64,000 nt of DNA from Hydrogenophaga sp. GTDB lineage: Bacteria > Pseudomonadota > Gammaproteobacteria > Burkholderiales > Burkholderiaceae_C. Below, piece after piece: positions 3,372-49,618 of the stretch (position 1 is the stretch's first letter; each line of letters begins with the position of its first letter). The position numbers were made by a program, and so were the translations under genes. The DNA lies in the NCBI GenBank assembly GCA_011391495.1, contig JAABQK010000015.1, positions 1-64,000 on the forward strand, in the 5' to 3' direction. A model generated the notes under the pieces. That model was not told the origin of the DNA. It saw only the letters and a list, made by a program, of their open reading frames with translations, and did not search any database.

Positions 3372-5690
3372 TCAGAACTTCACGTTCAGCCCGGCGTACA
3401 GCGTGCGCCCCATGCCCGGCACGGCGGTGCCCCACTGCGGGTAGTTGGGCAGCGCGGGGTTGGTCATGGTGGTGCCCTGGCCAACGTAAGCGCCGCCGGT
3501 GGGCAGGTTGTAGAACCGGTTGAAGAGGTTCTCGATGCCGACATCCAGCCGCACTGTTTTCCATGAATAACTGCCGCGCAGGTTCACCAGGCCGTAGCCG
3601 GGTGTCCTGATCTCGTTGCGCATGGTCGAGACGTGGGTCTTGGCTGCCACGGCCACCAGTTCGACGCTGTTGTCCCAGCCGCCCAGTTGGTGCGTGACAG
3701 CCAGTTTGGCGTTGAGCGGCATCATGTTGTAGAGACCGTCTCCGGTGTCGCGGTTGGAGCCGCGCGTGACGTTCAGCCGGCCCTTGAAACCCCATTCACC
3801 CGCGTCGTTGCGGGCCAGCGGCAGGTGCCCCGAGAGGTCCAGGCCGTAGAGGCGCGCCGACTGGTTGACGTACTTGAGCACGCTGAACTGGTCCCTGACC
3901 AGGGTCGTGGCGGCCTGGTTGGTGGCGGCGTTCCACTGGACGGCGTCGATGTAGTCGCTGACCCGGGTGACGTAGGGCGTGGCCCTGAAGCCCCAGCGCT
4001 GGTCTTCGGCGTGCCAGTCGAAGGTGGCCGAGAGCGTGTTGGCTTTCTCGGGCTTCAGGTTGAGGTTGCCGATGTAGCCATTGCCGTCGCCGACAAAGTT
4101 GTTCATGAGTGCGGCCATTTGCCAGGTGGACCAGGTGAAGCGCTCGTACACATTGGGTGAGCGCTCCTTGTGGGCGAAGCCAAACTCGATGTCCTGCGTC
4201 GGGCTGACGGTCCAGCGCGCCAGCGCGCTCAGGTCGAGGTTGCGGTCGGTGCTGGCGTGTTCGGCGGCGTTGAAGGCAGCCGCGTCGCGCCCCTGAAAGC
4301 CGCCACCGGCCGGGTTGTAGCCGGCCACGTCGCCCGCGTTCATCTTCACCTGCTCGAGGCGCGCGCCGATCAGCGTCATCCACTGCGCGCTCTGGCGGGT
4401 TTCCCACTCACCCCACAGGGCGGTGCGGTCGCGCTCACCGTCGCGGATGTTCCAGAAGGTGCCCGGCCACATGCCGGCACCGGAAGGCGGCCACCAGTCG
4501 TTGATCCGGTAGGTCTGCAGATCGCCGCCCAGCCGCAGCAGGTCCTGCTCGCCCAAGGGCACCTCGGCCTTGATGCTGACACCGGTCGTCTTGCCCTCGG
4601 TGTACATCGGCATGCCGGCTGCGCAGCTGGGGCCGATCGGGCTGCAGGGGATGCCGTCCAGCGCGGTGGCCCCTCCCGAGGCCGTGCCGTACCAGTAGCG
4701 CTTGTCGGCGCCAAAATCCATGAAGTGGTCCACTTTTTCCTGGTAGACCCGTGCCTCCAGTTGGCCCCAGTCGAGCTGGCCCGTGTAGCGCAGGTTCACA
4801 CTGGCCTGGTCGTTCCTGAGCATGTCCATGCGCTGGTTGGGGTAGAGCTGGGAAGGCATGTCCTGCACACCCAGCCGGGCCTCGAACAGGTGCTGGTCCC
4901 GCTTGAAGGCCAGGGCCAGCGTATGGTTGCGCGTCTCGTACGCCGTGGAGCCCACCTCGTCGCGCGGCAGTGTGTGGCCGACACGCCCCGTGAAGTCGTA
5001 GTCCTTGAAGTCGTCGCCCGCCGTGTAGTTGTCGGCCTGGCTGGTGGCGCCGCTGTAGCTGATGTTGAAGCGGTCGGTGGCGTAGGTGGCCGAGAGGTTG
5101 AGGCCGCTGGCGGCGTTGTTGCTGCGGTAGAAAGCGCCGGCCTCGCCTTTGCGGAGGGGTGCCTGCCCGGGCGCCGCAAACTCCGGCGCGCGCGTCTCGG
5201 CCAGGATGCTGCCGCCGATGCTGTCGCCGCCCGCGCTGACGGGTGAAATGCCGGCGTACACCTTGAGCGAACCGAGCTGGGTGGGATCGATGTACGAGAG
5301 TGCGGGATTCATGTGGTTGGGACAGGACGCGATCAGGTCCATGCCATCGACCTGGATGCGCAGCCGGTCATCGGCCAGGCCATGGATCGACGGCAGGCTC
5401 GACACACCGCCCGCCGCATTGAGGCTCACGCCGGGCACGTCGGCGAGCAGGCTGGCGGTGTCACTGGTGGCGGCCCGTCTGGGCAGCAGCTGTGACTGGC
5501 TGAGCTGGCCTGCGGCCTGGGGCAGCGGCACCACGCGGGTGCCCCGGACCACGACCTCTTCCAGTTGGGCGACCGGTTCGGCGGCCTGGCTGGCTGGCAT
5601 GTACAGCAGTGGAAACACGGCGGCGAGCGAAGCGCTCAGCAGCGAGAGGCGATGCACGGGTGCGCGTCGGGATTGAAAACGGGATGGCAT
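3372..5690 (-). CDS. TonB-dependent copper receptor (OprC/NosA type)
   Basis: Outer-membrane beta-barrel importer driven by TonB. The 772-residue protein has a long signal peptide, a TonB box-like segment (about 43-50, EEVVVRG) and a plug domain. The plug carries ASCPNHMNPALSY (C123, M127: a CxxxM element); a later loop carries VDHFMDF (H322, M324: an HxM element). CxxxM plus HxM is the copper-binding signature described for OprC-type receptors. The barrel ends in the expected terminal aromatic (NVKF). It is the last gene of a leftward cluster encoding PCuAC, SCO and DUF2946 proteins, which supports copper rather than iron as substrate. The ATG at 5690 was chosen because it starts a plausible signal peptide. 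Confidence 0.9.
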   Translation of the reverse strand: MPSRFQSRRAPVHRLSLLSASLAAVFPLLYMPASQAAEPVAQLEEVVVRGTRVVPLPQAAGQLSQSQLLPRRAATSDTASLLADVPGVSLNAAGGVSSLPSIHGLADDRLRIQVDGMDLIASCPNHMNPALSYIDPTQLGSLKVYAGISPVSAGGDSIGGSILAETRAPEFAAPGQAPLRKGEAGAFYRSNNAASGLNLSATYATDRFNISYSGATSQADNYTAGDDFKDYDFTGRVGHTLPRDEVGSTAYETRNHTLALAFKRDQHLFEARLGVQDMPSQLYPNQRMDMLRNDQASVNLRYTGQLDWGQLEARVYQEKVDHFMDFGADKRYWYGTASGGATALDGIPCSPIGPSCAAGMPMYTEGKTTGVSIKAEVPLGEQDLLRLGGDLQTYRINDWWPPSGAGMWPGTFWNIRDGERDRTALWGEWETRQSAQWMTLIGARLEQVKMNAGDVAGYNPAGGGFQGRDAAAFNAAEHASTDRNLDLSALARWTVSPTQDIEFGFAHKERSPNVYERFTWSTWQMAALMNNFVGDGNGYIGNLNLKPEKANTLSATFDWHAEDQRWGFRATPYVTRVSDYIDAVQWNAATNQAATTLVRDQFSVLKYVNQSARLYGLDLSGHLPLARNDAGEWGFKGRLNVTRGSNRDTGDGLYNMMPLNAKLAVTHQLGGWDNSVELVAVAAKTHVSTMRNEIRTPGYGLVNLRGSYSWKTVRLDVGIENLFNRFYNLPTGGAYVGQGTTMTNPALPNYPQWGTAVPGMGRTLYAGLNVKF

Positions 5691-40278: not shown

Positions 40279-40379
40279 GGTTTACCTCGAAAATCAACCT
40301 TAAAGTGTATGCGATGCCCCCGCTTGCGGTAGGCTTCCCCCGGTCTGGCAGATCCCAGAGGCGCATGGAGACACAAACA

Positions 40380-41132
40380 ATGGATGTTCAGACGGCCGGC
40401 AACTCGGCCCTGTACCTGTTTGAAAAATTCGAGGTCGGGGTGATCCATCTGGACGCCGGGCGCAATGTGGTGGCGATGAACGATTTCGCCCGCAAGGTGC
40501 TGCCGGTGGGCGAAAAGCAGCCGTTCGACAAGCTGGTGACCTCGTTCCATCCCGAGCGCTCCAAACCCAAGGTCAATTTTCTGCTGGACCAGGCATCGGG
40601 CTGCCCCGTGGCCAGCTCCACGCCCATGACCATGATCATCAACATCCCGGAACAGGTGCTGCTGATCAAGGTCACCCGGCTCGGCGATCACCTGGGCGTC
40701 ACCACCGGTTTCGTGCTCGTGTTTTACGACGTGACCCAGGTGGTGAGTCAGGACGCCCCGGCGACCGACACGCCGGCGGCGAATCTGCGGCTGAACCGCA
40801 TCCCCATGGTGGCCAACCACAAGGTGTCCTTTGTCGACACCCACGACGTGCTGTGCCTGGAATCCCAGGCGCACTACACCCGGGTGCTGACCCGCGAGGG
40901 CTTTCACTTCTGCAACCTGAGCATCGGGGATCTGGAAGCCCGGCTGAATCCGGCCCAGTTCATGCGCGTGCACCGCTGCTTCATCGTCAACCTGTGCGCC
41001 GTGGCCGAGCTCGGGCGCGAGGGCAGCAAGACCCAGGTGATCCTGAAAGGCAAACACCGCGATCCGATCCCGGTGGCGCGTGGGGACGTGGCCCGCCTGC
41101 GCGAAGCCCTCGGCATCATGGCCCGGCATTGA
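40380..41132 (+). CDS. rcoM: CO-sensing heme-PAS/LytTR transcriptional regulator (RcoM type)
   Basis: One-component activator of CO-oxidation genes. The 250-residue protein has an N-terminal PAS domain (about 10-115) and a C-terminal LytTR DNA-binding domain (about 145-245; FVDTHDVLCLESQAHYT, FMRVHRCFIVN). Remembered Burkholderia xenovorans RcoM residues align well. FHPERSKPKVNFLL gives the heme-ligand His (H57), GCPV gives the redox-switch Cys (C75), and TMIINIP gives the distal Met (M85), with the same Cys-to-Met spacing. The ATG at 40380 is preceded by GGAG with 9-base spacing; ATG at 40365 is an alternative. It stands directly upstream of coxMSL and its TTnnnG triplet. Confidence 0.92.
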   Translation: MDVQTAGNSALYLFEKFEVGVIHLDAGRNVVAMNDFARKVLPVGEKQPFDKLVTSFHPERSKPKVNFLLDQASGCPVASSTPMTMIINIPEQVLLIKVTRLGDHLGVTTGFVLVFYDVTQVVSQDAPATDTPAANLRLNRIPMVANHKVSFVDTHDVLCLESQAHYTRVLTREGFHFCNLSIGDLEARLNPAQFMRVHRCFIVNLCAVAELGREGSKTQVILKGKHRDPIPVARGDVARLREALGIMARH

Positions 41133-41199
41133 TGCCCCGCCTTTGCCTGCCCCTAGGACTTACCCGGATTGCCAAGCGGCATGCGCCTGATCTGAGCAC

Positions 41200-41247
41200 T
41201 TCATGCAGCTGGGCGCGCAATTCGTGCAAAAAACGCCGCATTTGATG
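41200..41247 (+). promoter_or_regulatory. RcoM-binding triplet: three TTnnnG direct repeats 21 bases apart
   Basis: TTCATG (41200-41205), TTCGTG (41221-41226) and TTGATG (41242-41247) are direct repeats with exact 21-base centre-to-centre spacing, each extended as TTnnTGC. Published footprints for B. xenovorans RcoM describe three direct TTnnnG sites 21 bases apart. The triplet lies between rcoM and coxM, ending 107 bases before the coxM start, consistent with activation of the cox operon. Confidence 0.88.
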
Positions 41248-41310
41248 CCTTCTGTCCGCTAAACCCCGACACTGGTGTCAAGTTCACAGTCTCCCTACAC
41301 TGGTTTGTCT

Positions 41311-41324
41311 TTGACAAATGTCAA
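41311..41324. promoter_or_regulatory. Palindrome TTGACA-AA-TGTCAA before coxM
   Basis: Perfect 6-base arms around AA, located 30 bases upstream of the coxM ATG and about 64 bases downstream of the last RcoM repeat. The left arm equals a consensus -35 box, but no good -10 follows at 16-18 bases. It could be a second operator or a leader element. Confidence 0.4.
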
Positions 41325-41353: not shown

Positions 41354-42217
41354 ATGATTCCACCGCGTTTCGAGTACCACGCACCGCGCTCCGTGAGCGA
41401 AGCCGTGGCCCTGCTGGGCCAGCTCGGCTCTGACGCCAAGCTGCTGGCCGGCGGCCACAGCCTGCTGCCGATGATGAAGCTGCGCTTTGCCGAGCCGGCG
41501 CACCTGATCGACATCAACCGCATTCCCGAACTGCGCGGCATCCGGGAAGCCGGCAACACGGTGGTGATCGGCGCGATGACTTCCGAAAACGAGCTGATCC
41601 ATTCCCCGCTGGTGCAGGCGAAACTGCCCTTGCTGGCCGAGGCCGCGAAGCTGATCGCCGACCCGCAGGTGCGCAACCGCGGCACCATCGGTGGCGACAT
41701 CGCCCACGGGGACCCGGGCAACGACCACCCCGCCCTGTCGATCGCGGTGGAAGCGCATTTCGTGCTGGAAGGTCCGAACGGCCGCCGCACCGTGCCGGCC
41801 GACGGCTTTTTCCTCGGCACCTACATGACGCTGCTGGAAGAAAACGAGGTGATGTGCGAGATCCACGCCCCGGCCTTCGCCCAAGGGACCGGCTGGGCCT
41901 ACGAAAAGCTCAAGCGCAAGACCGGCGACTGGGCCACCGCCGGCTGCGCGGTGGTGATGCGCAAGAGCGGCAACACGGTGAGCCATGTGCGCATCGCGCT
42001 CACCAACGTCGCGCCCACCGCGCTGCGCGCCGAAGCCGCCGAAGCGGCGTTGCTCGGCCAGGCCTTCACACCTGCGGCCGTGCAGGCCGCCGCCGACGCC
42101 GCCACCGCCATCTGCGACCCCGCCGAGGACCTGCGCGGCGACATTGAATACAAGACCGCCATGGCCGGCGAAATGGTCAAACGGGCCCTGGCCAAGGCCT
42201 GGGCCCGTTGCGCCTGA
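41354..42217 (+). CDS. coxM: Aerobic CO dehydrogenase medium (FAD) subunit CoxM
   Basis: Flavoprotein subunit that passes electrons from the Fe-S clusters to the quinone pool. The 287-residue protein has both FAD signatures of the CODH family: [13 protein letters not shown] (about 35-47) and [14 protein letters not shown] (about 111-124). CAGGAGA at 41342-41348 marks the ATG at 41354. It is the first gene of coxMSL and would be directly controlled by the RcoM triplet. Confidence 0.97.
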
Positions 42218-42242: not shown

Positions 42243-42728
42243 ATGGCAAAGAAACTCATTTCCGTCAACGTCAACGGCCGCACCGAAGAGAAAGCCGTCG
42301 AGCCACGCACCCTGCTGATCCACTTCCTGCGCGAGGAATTGAACCTCACCGGCGCCCACATCGGCTGCGAGACCAGCCACTGCGGCGCCTGCACCGTGGA
42401 CATCGACGGCCAGTCCGTCAAGAGCTGCACCCACCTCGCGGTGCAGTGCGACGGCTCCGAGGTGCTGACCGTCGAAGGCCTGGCCAACAAGGGCGTGCTG
42501 CACGCCGTGCAGGAAGGCTTCTACAAGGAACACGGCCTGCAGTGCGGCTTCTGCACCCCCGGCATGCTGATGCGCGCCTACCGTTTCCTGCAGGAGAACC
42601 CCAGCCCGAGCGAAGAGGAGATCCGCCACGGCATGGCCGGCAACCTGTGCCGCTGCACCGGCTACCAGAACATCGTCAAGGCGGTGCAGTACGCCGCCAA
42701 GAAACTGCAAGAACCCGTCACGGCCTGA
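42243..42728 (+). CDS. coxS: Aerobic CO dehydrogenase small (2Fe-2S) subunit CoxS
   Basis: A 161-residue iron-sulfur subunit. The N-terminal plant-ferredoxin-type cluster is bound by [10 protein letters not shown] plus a later Cys (SVKSC). The C-terminal cluster uses CGFCTPG and CRCTGYQN. It shuttles electrons from CoxL molybdenum to CoxM FAD. It lies 25 bases after coxM with an AGGAG site, in the canonical M-S-L order. Confidence 0.97.
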
Positions 42729-42743
42729 TCAGGAGAACACCAC

Positions 42744-45155
<2,412 letters not shown>

Positions 45156-45826: not shown

Positions 45827-46762
45827 ATGTCCAGCCCCCCGACGCCTCTTGACGAACGTGCCCTGCGCGAGCAGCTGCAGCGCGTCGGCTACCTGGCCGA
45901 CGCGGACCTCGCCACCACTGTCTGGCTGGCTGGCCGGCTGCAGCGACCGCTGCTGATCGAGGGTGACGCGGGCGTGGGCAAGACCGCGCTCGCCACCGCG
46001 CTGGCCCAGGCCCAGGGGGCCGAACTGGTGCGGCTGCAGTGCTTCGAAGGGCTGGACCTGTCGCAGGCGGCCTACGAATGGAACTACGGCCGCCAGCTGA
46101 TGGCGATCCGCCTGCACGAGGGCGGGCCCGGCCCGGTGAAGGAGTCCGACGTGTTCGCGCGCGACTTCCTGCTGGAGCGCCCGCTGCTCAAGGCCATCAG
46201 CCAGAGCGGCCCGTGCGTGCTGCTGATCGACGAGATCGACCGTGCCGACGAGGCCTTCGAAGCCTTCCTGCTGGAGGTGCTGGCCGATTACCAGATCACC
46301 GTGCCCGAGATCGGCACCATCCGCGCCTTGCACATCCCGCAGGTGATCCTGACAAGCAACGGCACGCGCGAACTCTCGGACGCGCTGCGCCGCCGCTGCC
46401 TCTACCACTACCTCGACTACCCGAGCGTGGCGCGCGAGATCGCGATCGTGAAGACCGCTGTGCCCGAGGCCGACAGCCGGCTGGTCGAAGAGTGCGTGCA
46501 GTTCGTGCAGCGCCTGCGACACGAAGACCTCGCCAAGACCCCCGGCATTGCCGAAACGCTGGACTGGGTGCGCGCCCTGCACCAGCTCGACCAGCACACC
46601 CTGCCCGATGACATGGCCGTGCTGCTCACCACGCTCGGCTGCCTGCTCAAGACGCGCGAAGACCGCTTCCTGCTCACCACCGACCGCGCACGGCAGCTGG
46701 TGGAGGGCCGGCGCAGCGTGGGCGTGGCGGAAAGAACCGACGCAGTGATGGCCGCGCCATGA
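45827..46762 (+). CDS. coxD: MoxR-type AAA+ ATPase CoxD
   Basis: ATPase of 311 residues needed in known systems to mature the Mo-Cu centre of CODH (sulfuration and copper insertion). Walker A is GDAGVGKT (about 46-53), Walker B LLIDEIDRADEAFE, sensor region ILTSNGTRELSDALRRRCLYH. It overlaps coxE by four bases (ATGA), consistent with the MoxR/VWA partnership. Confidence 0.94.
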   Translation: MSSPPTPLDERALREQLQRVGYLADADLATTVWLAGRLQRPLLIEGDAGVGKTALATALAQAQGAELVRLQCFEGLDLSQAAYEWNYGRQLMAIRLHEGGPGPVKESDVFARDFLLERPLLKAISQSGPCVLLIDEIDRADEAFEAFLLEVLADYQITVPEIGTIRALHIPQVILTSNGTRELSDALRRRCLYHYLDYPSVAREIAIVKTAVPEADSRLVEECVQFVQRLRHEDLAKTPGIAETLDWVRALHQLDQHTLPDDMAVLLTTLGCLLKTREDRFLLTTDRARQLVEGRRSVGVAERTDAVMAAP

Positions 46763-47940
46763 ACCCGACCCGCACGCCGCACGCGGTACCGCCCGGGCAA
46801 AGCCTGGCGGGCTTTGCCGCCATGCTGCGCGACCACGGCCTGAAGGTCGGCGTGGCCGAGCAGCAGGCCATGCTGCAGGCGGGCATGGCCCTGGGCGCCC
46901 TGCAGGGCGAACGGCTGCGCGCTGCCTGGCGCGCCATTGCCTGCCACAGCGCGCGCGACTGGCGGCAGTGGCCCGAGCTGTTCGAACGCTACTGGTACCC
47001 GCAGCGGCTCAAGGGCCAGGTGCGCGTGAGCGGCCAGATGCGGCCGTCGCGCGACCTGCGCCAGGCGGTGCAGGAGATGCACACCCATATGGCGGCACCC
47101 ACGGCCAGCGCCCCTGGCAAGGCCGCACCGCACACCGCCAGCGACGCTCCCGGCGCCAGCCAGCACACCGGCGACGCGGGCAGCCCGCGCGCCATGGGTG
47201 GCGCCAGCCGCACCGAAGCGCTGCACCAGCGCGACGGCCAGATGTGGCTGCCGCAGGAGCTCGGCGCGCTGCAACAGCTGGCGCGCCAGATCACCGCCGA
47301 GCTGCGACCCCGCCCCACCCGGCGCTGGCAGACCGCACAGCCCGGGCGGCGGCTCGACCTGCGCCAGACCCTGCGCCGCAGCGTGGCCTGGGGCGGCGAG
47401 CCGCTGCGCCCGGCCTGGCAGGTGCAGCGGCGCGAGCCGCCGCGCCTGTTCATCCTGGCCGACGTGAGCCGCTCCATGGAGGCGCACGCGCCGCTGTTCC
47501 TGCGTATCGCGCGGGCCTTTGCGGTGGCGGCGCAGGCGCGGGTGTTCGTGTTCCACGTGCGGCTGGCCGAGGTCACACCGCTGATGCAGCGCGATTCGGC
47601 GGCCATCCAGGAAAAGATCAACGCCGTGACCGCGGGCTTCGGCGCGGGCACCCGCATCGCGCAGAGCCTGCAGGATTTCGTGCGCATCCATGCCCGCGCC
47701 CAGCTCCACCGCGGCGCGCGGGTCTGGATCTTTTCCGATGGCTTCGACACCGACGCCCCCGAGGCCCTGCCCGAGGCGCTGCGCGCGGTGCGCCAGCGCG
47801 GCGCGCGCATCACCTGGTTCCACCCCACGCGCGAGGTGCCCGCGGCCACCGCGCTGCAGCGCTCGCGCGCCTGTGTGGAGCGTTTCATCCCCCTGGCCAG
47901 CGTGAACGACCTGGCCGCTGCCCGACACATGCTGCACTGA
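46759..47940 (+). CDS. coxE: VWA-domain protein CoxE
   Basis: A 393-residue partner of CoxD. The C-terminal von Willebrand A domain has the MIDAS motif DVSRS (LFILADVSRSMEAH) and a later Thr/Asp region (SDGFDTDAPEALPEAL). The N-terminal 200 residues are helical and basic, with an Ala/Pro/Ser-rich linker. MoxR/VWA pairs act as metal-insertion chaperones, and CoxE is implicated in copper insertion into CODH. Translationally coupled to coxD. Confidence 0.92.
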   Translation: MNPTRTPHAVPPGQSLAGFAAMLRDHGLKVGVAEQQAMLQAGMALGALQGERLRAAWRAIACHSARDWRQWPELFERYWYPQRLKGQVRVSGQMRPSRDLRQAVQEMHTHMAAPTASAPGKAAPHTASDAPGASQHTGDAGSPRAMGGASRTEALHQRDGQMWLPQELGALQQLARQITAELRPRPTRRWQTAQPGRRLDLRQTLRRSVAWGGEPLRPAWQVQRREPPRLFILADVSRSMEAHAPLFLRIARAFAVAAQARVFVFHVRLAEVTPLMQRDSAAIQEKINAVTAGFGAGTRIAQSLQDFVRIHARAQLHRGARVWIFSDGFDTDAPEALPEALRAVRQRGARITWFHPTREVPAATALQRSRACVERFIPLASVNDLAAARHMLH

Positions 47941-47957: not shown

Positions 47958-48935
47958 ATGAACCCCAACGAATGGATCACCCACGCCGCCCGGCTGCAAG
48001 CCGAGCAAACCGCGTTTGCGCTGGTCACCGTGCTGCGCGCGCAAGCCCCCACCTCGGCCAAGGCCGGCGACAAGGCCCTGGTCACCGCCGACGGGCAGAT
48101 CCACGGCTGGATCGGTGGCGGCTGCGCGCAGCCCGCGGTGGTGAAGACCGTGCGCCTGGCCCTGGCCAGCGGCCAGCCACAAAGCATCCGCATCGCGCCC
48201 ACCGATGCCACCGCCGAGCGCACGCTGGGCGACGTGCTGGAGTTCGGCATGGCCTGCCACTCGGGCGGCACGCTCGAGCTCTTCATCGACCCCGTGCTGC
48301 CGGCACCGCAGCTCACCGTGTTCGGCGACTCGCCGGTGGCGCGCGCGCTGGCTGGCCTCGCCCCTCGCGTGGGCCTGCGCGTGGCGCTGGTGGCCGAGGG
48401 TGCCAGCGCCACCGATTTCCCGGAGGCCGCTCTGGTGGTGGGCCGCGACGCGGTCGAACCGGTGGTGCAACAGATCACCAGCGGTGGCCTGGCCGTGGTG
48501 GCCACCCAGGGCCGGCGCGACCTGCCCGCGCTGAAAGCCGCGCTGGCCTTGCGGCCGCAGACGCTGTGGTTCGTGGCCAGCGAACGCAAGGCCTCCGTGC
48601 TGCGCCAGAGCCTCATCAGCAGCGGCGAAGACGCGGCCGCGGTGGCGGCCATCGTGGCCCCTGCGGGCGAACCCATCGGCGCGCAGACACCCGAAGAGAT
48701 CGCGCTGTCGGTGCTGGCGGCCGTGGTGGCCGCGCGGCGCAGGCGCGTGGCACCGGCGCTTGCGCTGGAAACGGCGACGGCAGCCCGGCCAGCGCCAACG
48801 TTCAAGCTCGACCTGCCACCCTTGGAAGTGGGCAGCTGCTGCGGCGGCGAGGCCCAAGCGGTGGCTGCGCCCGAAGCCGCTGTCGAACCGGCCGCTGCGG
48901 CGCCGGTCAAGAAGTCCTGCTGCGGAGGAAGCTGA
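47958..48935 (+). CDS. coxF: XdhC-family maturation factor CoxF with double SCCGG tail
   Basis: A 325-residue XdhC/CoxI-family protein involved in molybdenum cofactor handling for CODH. The N-terminal XdhC domain has TSAKAGDKALVTADGQ and GWIGGGCAQPAV; a Rossmann-like domain follows (about 120-250). The Ala/Pro-rich C-terminus carries two Cys-pair motifs, GSCCGG and KSCCGGS, about 30 residues apart. Such paired Cys could bind Cu(I) or carry sulfur. It is one of two XdhC-type proteins in the cluster (the other is coxI). Confidence 0.9.
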   Translation: MNPNEWITHAARLQAEQTAFALVTVLRAQAPTSAKAGDKALVTADGQIHGWIGGGCAQPAVVKTVRLALASGQPQSIRIAPTDATAERTLGDVLEFGMACHSGGTLELFIDPVLPAPQLTVFGDSPVARALAGLAPRVGLRVALVAEGASATDFPEAALVVGRDAVEPVVQQITSGGLAVVATQGRRDLPALKAALALRPQTLWFVASERKASVLRQSLISSGEDAAAVAAIVAPAGEPIGAQTPEEIALSVLAAVVAARRRRVAPALALETATAARPAPTFKLDLPPLEVGSCCGGEAQAVAAPEAAVEPAAAAPVKKSCCGGS

Positions 48936-48937
48936 AC

Positions 48938-49618
48938 ATGGGCTGCATTCTCAAAGGGGGGGGTGGCCTCTACAGCCGGCTCGCGGTGGGCGCGGTGCTG
49001 CTGGCCGCGGGCTCGGGTTCGCGCATGGGCCACCGGCCGAAATGCCTGCTGGAGCTCGGCGGCATACCGTTGATCCGGCGCCAGATCATCGCGCTCTCGG
49101 GCGCGGGGGTGGACGAGCTGGTGGTGGTGCTCGGGCACCACGCGGAACGCATCGCGCAGGTGGTGCAGGAGTTCCCGGTGACCGTGGTGCACAACCCGGA
49201 CCCGGACGCGGGACAGAACTCGTCGCTGCGCCTGGGCCTGCAGGCGCTCTCGCCCAGGATCGACACCGTGCTGGTGGCGCTGGCCGACCAGCCGCTGATC
49301 CACTCGCAGGACATCAATGACCTGATCGGCGCCTACAAGAAGCGCCCCGAAGGCACGCTGGTGGTGCAGCCCGAGGTGGACGGCCAGCCAGGGAACCCGG
49401 TGCTGTTCAGCGCCGAGGTGCGCGAGCAGATCCTGGCGGGCGAAGCCCGACTGGGCTGCAAGCAGTGGCAGGCCGCCCATCCCGAACAGGTTCACCGCTG
49501 GGCCACCACCAACCAGCGCTACCGCACCGATGTCGACACGCTGGAAGACATCGAGGCCCTGGCCGTGCGCACCGGCCACCGGCTGCGCTGGCCGGCCGAC
49601 CTGCTGGCCAGTGCCTGA
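48938..49618 (+). CDS. MocA-type molybdopterin cytidylyltransferase-like protein
   Basis: A 226-residue nucleotidyltransferase with the N-terminal signature LLAAGSGSRMGHRPKCLLEL and ADQPLI, typical of MobA/MocA. CODH uses molybdopterin cytosine dinucleotide, so the MocA function is expected. GGAGGAA at 48924-48930 sets the ATG at 48938. Codons 7-9 lie within a run of eight G (48956-48963), which is unusual at the 5' end of a gene. It overlaps no neighbour and follows coxF by two bases. Confidence 0.88.
   Translation: MGCILKGGGGLYSRLAVGAVLLAAGSGSRMGHRPKCLLELGGIPLIRRQIIALSGAGVDELVVVLGHHAERIAQVVQEFPVTVVHNPDPDAGQNSSLRLGLQALSPRIDTVLVALADQPLIHSQDINDLIGAYKKRPEGTLVVQPEVDGQPGNPVLFSAEVREQILAGEARLGCKQWQAAHPEQVHRWATTNQRYRTDVDTLEDIEALAVRTGHRLRWPADLLASA

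What the first reader, a model, noticed from the sequence alone, without database searches (positions are those of the whole stretch)
41200..41247. Perfect RcoM operator triplet between a CO sensor and its CO dehydrogenase operon
TTCATG, TTCGTG and TTGATG occur as direct repeats with exactly 21 bases between starts. Published work on Burkholderia RcoM reports three TTnnnG sites 21 bases apart. Here all three share TTnnTGC, suggesting a longer consensus. The adjacent gene encodes a heme-PAS/LytTR protein with the expected His/Cys/Met ligands, and coxMSL follows.
Basis: partly seen in the sequence, partly recalled or inferred. Interest (0 to 1): 0.85.

Follow-up and report, generated by a model that had tools for sequence, protein, structure and literature searches.

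The report
Carbon monoxide operator before coxM
A predicted bacterial switch site, three spaced copies of a short DNA word between a likely carbon-monoxide sensor gene and the genes that burn carbon monoxide, is real and conserved; it is a known kind of site, and a similar one sits before the same genes in distant bacteria that use a different carbon-monoxide sensor.

Summary
Of 79 rcoM-coxM stretches, 75 hold a TTCGTGC pair at 20-22 bp scoring 12 or more of 14, against 14 of 5400 ordinary windows. The distance to a -10-like hexamer is nearly fixed, so it belongs to the coxM promoter. The 'extended consensus' is essentially the printed RcoM-1 motif TTCNNGCA with 12-13 bp gaps (PMC11347149, passages): a new member of a known kind. 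The third repeat is the weak one; all three slots are TTnnnG in only 22 of 79. Beyond the finding: the same pair stands before coxM in alphaproteobacteria with an MHYT-LytTR regulator, 7 of 7 scored, including Afipia carboxidovorans OM5, where the CoxC paper's text, as searched, treats only PcoxB; and a conserved box lies about 44 bp upstream of repeat 1 in 62 of 79. No binding data exist here.

The parts
40380..41132 (+). rcoM-type gene, 250 aa: N-terminal PAS-like sensor half with His57/Cys75/Met85, C-terminal LytTR DNA-binding domain (an alternative ATG lies in frame at 40365)
41156..41172 (+). conserved upstream box GGACTTACCCGGATTGC, 44 bp before repeat 1; binder unknown
41200..41207 (+). 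operator repeat 1, TTCATGCA
41221..41228 (+). operator repeat 2, TTCGTGCA (the slot that is most often TTnnnG in relatives)
41242..41249 (+). operator repeat 3, TTGATGCC (promoter-proximal, weakly conserved slot)
41296..41301 (+). predicted -10 hexamer TACACT, 54 bp from the start of repeat 3; no passable sigma-70 promoter pair by the consensus scan
41311..41324 (+). FNR/FixK-like palindrome TTGACAAATGTCAA just after the predicted start of transcription (motif name recalled)
41354..42217 (+). coxM, FAD subunit of aerobic CO dehydrogenase
42243..42728 (+). coxS, 2Fe-2S subunit
42744..45155 (+). coxL, molybdenum subunit, form I (AYRCSFR in the translation; that this marks form I is recalled), TIGR02416
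45169..45813 (+). coxG
45827..46762 (+). AAA ATPase (coxD-like by position)
46759..47940 (+). CoxE-like VWA protein
47958..48935 (+). XdhC-like maturation protein (coxF-like; NCBIfam match 93.8 bits, below that model's cut-off of 350)
48938..49618 (+). MobA-like nucleotidyltransferase (mocA-like; start approximate)

Best explanation
The stretch is the operator of the coxM promoter, bound by the RcoM protein encoded just upstream. CO replaces the methionine ligand of the ferrous PAS heme, the LytTR domains then grip repeats on one face of the DNA at two-turn intervals, and RNA polymerase is recruited to a promoter with a fair -10 and no good -35, so that coxMSLG and the maturation genes are made when CO is present. 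Shown by sequence: the repeats, their conservation and spacing, the gene order, the conserved ligand residues, the lack of a consensus -35. Inferred: heme and CO binding, DNA binding, activation rather than repression, the transcription start, and that the downstream genes form one operon.
For: 75 of 79 rcoM-coxM stretches have the pair at 12 or more of 14 against 3 of 1580 shuffles and 14 of 5400 real windows from the same loci; 23 of 24 after thinning RcoM to below 80% identity. A -10-like hexamer lies 95-97 bp from repeat 1 in 63 of 79 (51 of the 64 loci whose register was not shifted by hand). A profile built from 34 operators, the window's among them, gives 36.1 bits here and at most 16.0 elsewhere in the own assembly (150 of 755 first-look candidates were scored). 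Among loci not used for the profile, L044 (27.8 bits), L043, L009 and L077 match at the coxM operator at E below 0.01. Cox loci with a LytTR regulator have the pair (12 or more) in 15 of 18, without one in 1 of 11 (Fisher p 2.6e-4). His/Cys/Met invariant in 82 of 82.
Against: No binding, expression or spectroscopic data for this organism. Repeat 3 is off the printed consensus and TTnnnG in only 39 of 79; the strict triplet is in 22 of 79, although the CoxC paper found all three copies needed at PcoxB. CoxC represses at PcoxB, so the sign of regulation cannot be read from the motif alone. The profile is not sharp: of the 18 sources other than the window, 7 more match the operator only at E 0.07-0.7, 7 do not match there at all (L066, L072, L074, L076, L083, L084, L085), and L009 and L043 each show a second match away from coxM (17.6 and 16.2 bits) about as strong as their own operator; so a weaker second site in the own assembly is not excluded. 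Cox loci with more distant RcoM are less clean: L124 and L148 score 11, reached by 9 and 4 of 60 shuffles, Caballeronia SBC1 11. L154 has a LytTR regulator and no clear pair; L132 has the pair and no LytTR regulator in the 10 kb seen.
Confidence: 0.9

Rival explanations
1. RcoM binds here but as a repressor that CO releases, as CoxC does at PcoxB.
For: CoxC, a LytTR relative with a similar operator, is a repressor relieved by CO (PMC11347149).
Against: Repeat 3 ends 46 bp before the -10, so the repeats lie upstream of any -35, whereas the PcoxB operator overlaps the -35; no sigma-70 promoter with a passable -35 is found here, which suits activation; RcoM1 is described as an activator binding upstream of -35.
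Confidence: 0.06
2. The repeats are an operator, but the main binder is another LytTR protein in the genome.
For: A second LytTR-like match exists in the own assembly (C55, E 2.5e-5).
Against: It is 28% identical, over the LytTR half only, and on another contig; the repeats go with rcoM-coxM neighbourhood in relatives.
Confidence: 0.02
3. Chance spacing of TTnnnG words.
For: TTnnnG is short; a second triplet at 4060 in the window is likely chance.
Against: Footprint across 79 loci, nearly fixed spacing to the -10, real-DNA controls.
Confidence: 0.01

Closest known systems
RcoM-1 operator of Paraburkholderia xenovorans LB400
   Same: Three imperfect direct repeats TTCNNGCA with 12-13 bp gaps bound by a heme-PAS/LytTR CO sensor of cox genes (described in PMC11347149, passages; original papers not held).
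   Different: Here repeat 3 departs from the consensus, rcoM runs in the same direction straight into coxM, and a GGACTTACCCGGATTGC box lies 44 bp upstream; in the P. aromaticivorans plasmid relative rcoM is divergent and an OmpW gene lies between. The LB400 promoter itself was not seen.
CoxC operator at PcoxB of Afipia carboxidovorans OM5
   Same: Three TTNNNGCN repeats at two-turn (18-21 bp) intervals read by a LytTR domain that answers to CO. My scan finds a TTnnnG triplet upstream of the gene taken to be coxB, but the paper's repeats are in a figure that is not held, so I could not check that it is the same one.
   Different: CoxC is a membrane MHYT sensor that needs copper and a repressor whose operator overlaps the -35.
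Canonical LytTR sites (AgrA and the like)
   Same: Direct repeats about two turns apart, LytTR fold (Foldseek 3d6w, AgrA entries).
   Different: Canonical sites are pairs of 9 bp repeats 10-13 bp apart.

Membership tests
RcoM | C-terminal LytTR DNA-binding domain | tested here: met
   PF04397 E 1.8e-18; Foldseek 3d6w E 2.7e-7
RcoM | N-terminal PAS domain | tested here: met
   Met on structure rather than sequence: PAS_10 E 8.6e-4 at 20.4 bits, below the 22.1 cut-off; AlphaFold model of moderate confidence in this half matches PAS domains including heme PAS of Aer2, SrrB (E 5.8e-4) and FixL (E 3e-3)
RcoM | heme ligands His, Cys, Met (His74/Cys94/Met104 of RcoM-1, numbering recalled; Met104 seen in a reference title) | tested here: met
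   His57, Cys75, Met85 align with His75, Cys95, Met105 of the P. aromaticivorans protein; 82 of 82 invariant. RcoM-1 itself was not in the alignment
RcoM | binds heme and CO | not testable with these tools
   needs purified protein
RcoM | linked to CO oxidation genes | tested here: met
   coxMSLG directly downstream
RcoM operator | three imperfect direct repeats TTCNNGCA, 12-13 bp gaps | tested here: met
   repeats 1 and 2 match fully, repeat 3 matches 4 of 6 defined letters; gaps 13 and 13 bp
RcoM operator | CO-dependent binding and activation of the cox promoter | not testable with these tools
   needs gel shift and reporter

The most novel reading that the evidence does not exclude
One cox operator code, a TTCGTGC pair at 20-21 bp plus a looser third copy, mostly 120-190 bp before coxM, is read by two unrelated CO sensors, heme-PAS RcoM and membrane MHYT-LytTR regulators. 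The site between coxC and coxM of A. carboxidovorans OM5 (TTCGTGC, TTGGTGA, CTGGTGC at 20 bp steps) would then be a second, untested operator of the model carboxidotroph, and in Burkholderiales a separate factor that reads GGACTTACCCGGATTGC shares the promoter in fixed phase.
Probability: 0.45. Interest if true: 0.6.

Novelty: new member of a known kind. Interest (0 to 1): 0.4.

Why it matters
It shows that the RcoM type of cox control extends through Hydrogenophaga, Limnohabitans and their kin, gives an operator and promoter geometry that can be measured against, and shows which repeats evolution keeps. The shared site before coxM in MHYT-LytTR loci makes a direct test possible: whether sensor domains were exchanged on a constant DNA code, and whether CoxC or CoxH also acts at coxM in A. 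carboxidovorans.

Tried and rejected
The upstream box was first taken for a CrbR/ErdR acetate-control motif; the printed ACTU motif sequences differ (PMC5715377 passages), and the searched words gave nothing in the ped cluster paper. It was then taken for a pleiotropic site: the 16-letter box pattern has one hit in the own assembly with up to 1 mismatch, a shorter 12-letter form a second hit on contig C38 whose setting was not resolved, and 4 of 120 family genomes, own included, have the exact 17-letter form, the three others with no cox match within 1.5 kb. In the window alone, 10 of 100 shuffles also give a box match at up to 2 mismatches. A sigma-54 reading of the box was dropped because the GG-GC spacing does not fit (recalled consensus). 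Other RcoM targets in the own assembly: none above 16.0 bits among 150 of 755 candidates scored. A strict TTnnnG-triplet scan at 20-22 bp found 29 of 80 stretches, some of them plainly spurious, which is why the pair score was used.

Rows dropped before the 79: L066 (no coxM match in the stretch) and L044 (10 bp intergenic as parsed, split coxM match; it does hold an operator match). Rows dropped before the 29: L127 and L153 (no coxM in the stretch). In one search the register of 15 loci was shifted by 21 bp by hand so that the upstream slot became repeat 1; 12 of these contribute to the 63 of 79, and the slot counts and the -34 position of the box in L079, L081 and L082 rest on the same choice. 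The box consensus was drawn from the same loci in which it was then counted.

Full report
What is there. Three direct repeats start at 41200 (TTCATGCA), 41221 (TTCGTGCA) and 41242 (TTGATGCC) on the + strand, exactly 21 bp apart. In the 64 kb window TTnnnG x3 at this spacing has two hits against a shuffle mean of 0.16, and TTnnTGC x3 has one, reached in 0 of 100 shuffles. The repeats lie in a 221 bp gap between a gene for a PAS-like/LytTR protein and coxM.

The neighbours. The upstream protein (250 aa from 40380) has a LytTR domain (E 1.8e-18), a weak PAS match (PAS_10 E 8.6e-4, below the Pfam cut-off), and an AlphaFold model (mean pLDDT 75.8, lower in the sensor half) whose halves match LytTR structures (3d6w, AgrA) and PAS structures, among them heme PAS of Aer2, SrrB and FixL. 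His57, Cys75 and Met85 are invariant in 82 of 82 aligned proteins (window, 80 relatives, one plasmid protein), and align with His75, Cys95 and Met105 of the 33%-identical Paraburkholderia aromaticivorans plasmid protein beside cox genes. Downstream follow coxM, coxS, coxL (TIGR02416, 1569 bits, cut-off 991), coxG, an AAA ATPase, a CoxE-like protein, an XdhC-like protein and a MobA-like protein.

The footprint. A genome-contig search kept the best 80 of 123 relatives, so close kin are favoured. With the window, 79 stretches between rcoM and coxM could be scored (L066 and L044 dropped). The best TTCGTGC pair at 20-22 bp scores 12 or more of 14 in 75 of 79; shuffled stretches do so in 3 of 1580, real 250 bp windows from the same loci (pair at 20 or 21 bp) in 14 of 5400. 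After thinning the RcoM proteins to below 80% identity 23 of 24 still do. The slots are not equal: TTnnnG stands in slot 1 in 63, slot 2 in 75 and slot 3 in 39 of 79; all three in 22 of 79, the window included (15 loci in a register set by hand). In Limnohabitans the third slot is often of the kind TGAATGAC.

Geometry. A -10-like hexamer stands 95-97 bp from slot 1 in 63 of 79, TACACT at 41296 in the window, 54 bp from the start of repeat 3. Fifteen loci had their register shifted by hand by 21 bp; without them the count is 51 of 64. Because the best hexamer was taken from 18 offsets, about one in six would fall there by chance. Some GC-rich relatives have it elsewhere (104-105 in L067, L070, L071, L078) or not at all (L079, L081). 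No sigma-70 promoter with a passable -35 is found in the window's gap. With a start about seven bases after the -10 (inferred), the repeats begin near -108, -87 and -66, on one face of the helix and upstream of polymerase, which suits activation.

Specificity. A sequence profile built from 34 operators, the window's among them, finds one strong site in the 3.23 Mb own assembly (86% complete): 36.1 bits at 41200, next best 16.0, with 150 of 755 first-look candidates scored. The profile is not sharp: some operators outside the training set score only 16-18 bits or are missed, and L009 and L043 each carry a second match of like strength away from coxM. So cox is the only clear target, but a weak second one is not excluded.

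Beyond RcoM. Form I cox loci were drawn from order, class and phylum (7 of 399, 12 of 369 and 18 of 398 genomes matched, own included and partly the same genomes) and upstream stretches fetched (31 loci, 2 without coxM; G903 was left out). Where a LytTR regulator, RcoM or MHYT-LytTR, matched in the stretch, the pair upstream of coxM scored 12 or more in 15 of 18 (11 or more in 17 of 18); where none matched, in 1 of 11 at either threshold (Fisher p 2.6e-4 and 5.8e-6). L149, with an MHYT match but no LytTR match, is counted among the 11. Absence of a regulator is only within the stretch fetched, about 4-12.5 kb. Of the 25 plasmid records, 13 were fetched. Seven have an MHYT-LytTR gene before coxM, and 7 of 7 have the pair at 12 or more: A. 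carboxidovorans OM5, Bradyrhizobium betae, Roseivivax THAF40, Rhizobium SL42, Shinella HZN7, Aestuarium, Marivivens (3 of 200 shuffles reach 12 for Marivivens, none for the others); three LytTR loci without cox score 8-9. R. jaguaris (L160) was fetched and not scored; the two RcoM plasmids score 12 (P. aromaticivorans) and 11 (Caballeronia SBC1). In OM5 the site is TTCGTGC, TTGGTGA, CTGGTGC at 20 bp steps between coxC and coxM. The CoxC paper describes the triplet at PcoxB; a term search of its text found PcoxM nowhere, and coxM only in the introduction and its figure legend. That both sensors read similar repeats is already said there; that the coxM-proximal site is the conserved one I did not find in print in searches, which cover openly licensed papers only and of which 89 listed 15 of 683 papers.

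The upstream box. GGACTTACCCGGATTGC (41156-41172) lies 44 bp before repeat 1; a match of 14 or more of 17 lies 43-45 bp before slot 1 in 62 of 79 (the consensus was drawn from the same loci). It keeps this distance even where the rcoM-coxM gap is 998 or 717 bp (L011, L027), so it goes with the cox promoter and not with the end of rcoM. In L079, L081 and L082 a GGGTTAACCCG-like word stands at 34 bp, one helical turn nearer, if their hand-set register is right. In 25 genomes with such loci the box pattern is found in 17, once in 15 of them and twice in two; the extra copies lie at one conserved place between genes that I read by eye as HxlR-like and MarR-like. Its binder is unknown.

What is known. 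The CoxC paper (passages read) gives the RcoM-1 motif as three imperfect TTCNNGCA repeats with 12-13 bp gaps, that is 20-21 bp between starts. The original RcoM papers are not held. I file the finding as a new member of a known kind.

Noticed in passing
window 41156-41172: Conserved 17 bp box at nearly fixed distance from the operator in 62 of 79 rcoM-cox promoters; rare elsewhere in the genomes searched; binder unknown.
   Followed up: partly
window 41311-41324: TTGACAAATGTCAA, an FNR/FixK-like palindrome (name recalled) just after the predicted transcription start; TTGA-N6-TCAA in the last 90 bp before coxM in 13 of 79 against 6 of 3950 shuffles. It may mean anoxic repression.
   Followed up: partly
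window 41305-41317: TTGTC-N2-4-GACAA palindrome near the predicted 5' end of the coxM transcript, in 9 of 79 against 0 of 3950 shuffles; could be a DNA site or an mRNA hairpin.
   Followed up: no
L085 6398-6444: Triplet between coxC and coxM of Afipia carboxidovorans OM5, not discussed in the CoxC paper's text as searched.
   Followed up: partly
L156 and L158: On Sinorhizobium meliloti and Rhizobium leguminosarum plasmids a relative of the MHYT-LytTR regulators lies before an EAL-domain gene instead of cox, without the TTCGTGC pair.
   Followed up: no
L132: Form I cox locus with TTCGTGC-like repeats but no LytTR regulator in the 10 kb fetched.
   Followed up: no
L087, L093, L111: The upstream box recurs at one conserved place between HxlR-like and MarR-like genes (read by eye) in three genomes, two of them Hydrogenophaga and one of the window's genus.
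   Followed up: partly
L009 12138-12178 and L043 10840-10879: Second operator-profile matches (17.6 and 16.2 bits) away from coxM, about as strong as these loci's own coxM site.
   Followed up: no
window 4060-4107: Second TTnnnG triplet at 21 bp in the window, probably chance.
   Followed up: no
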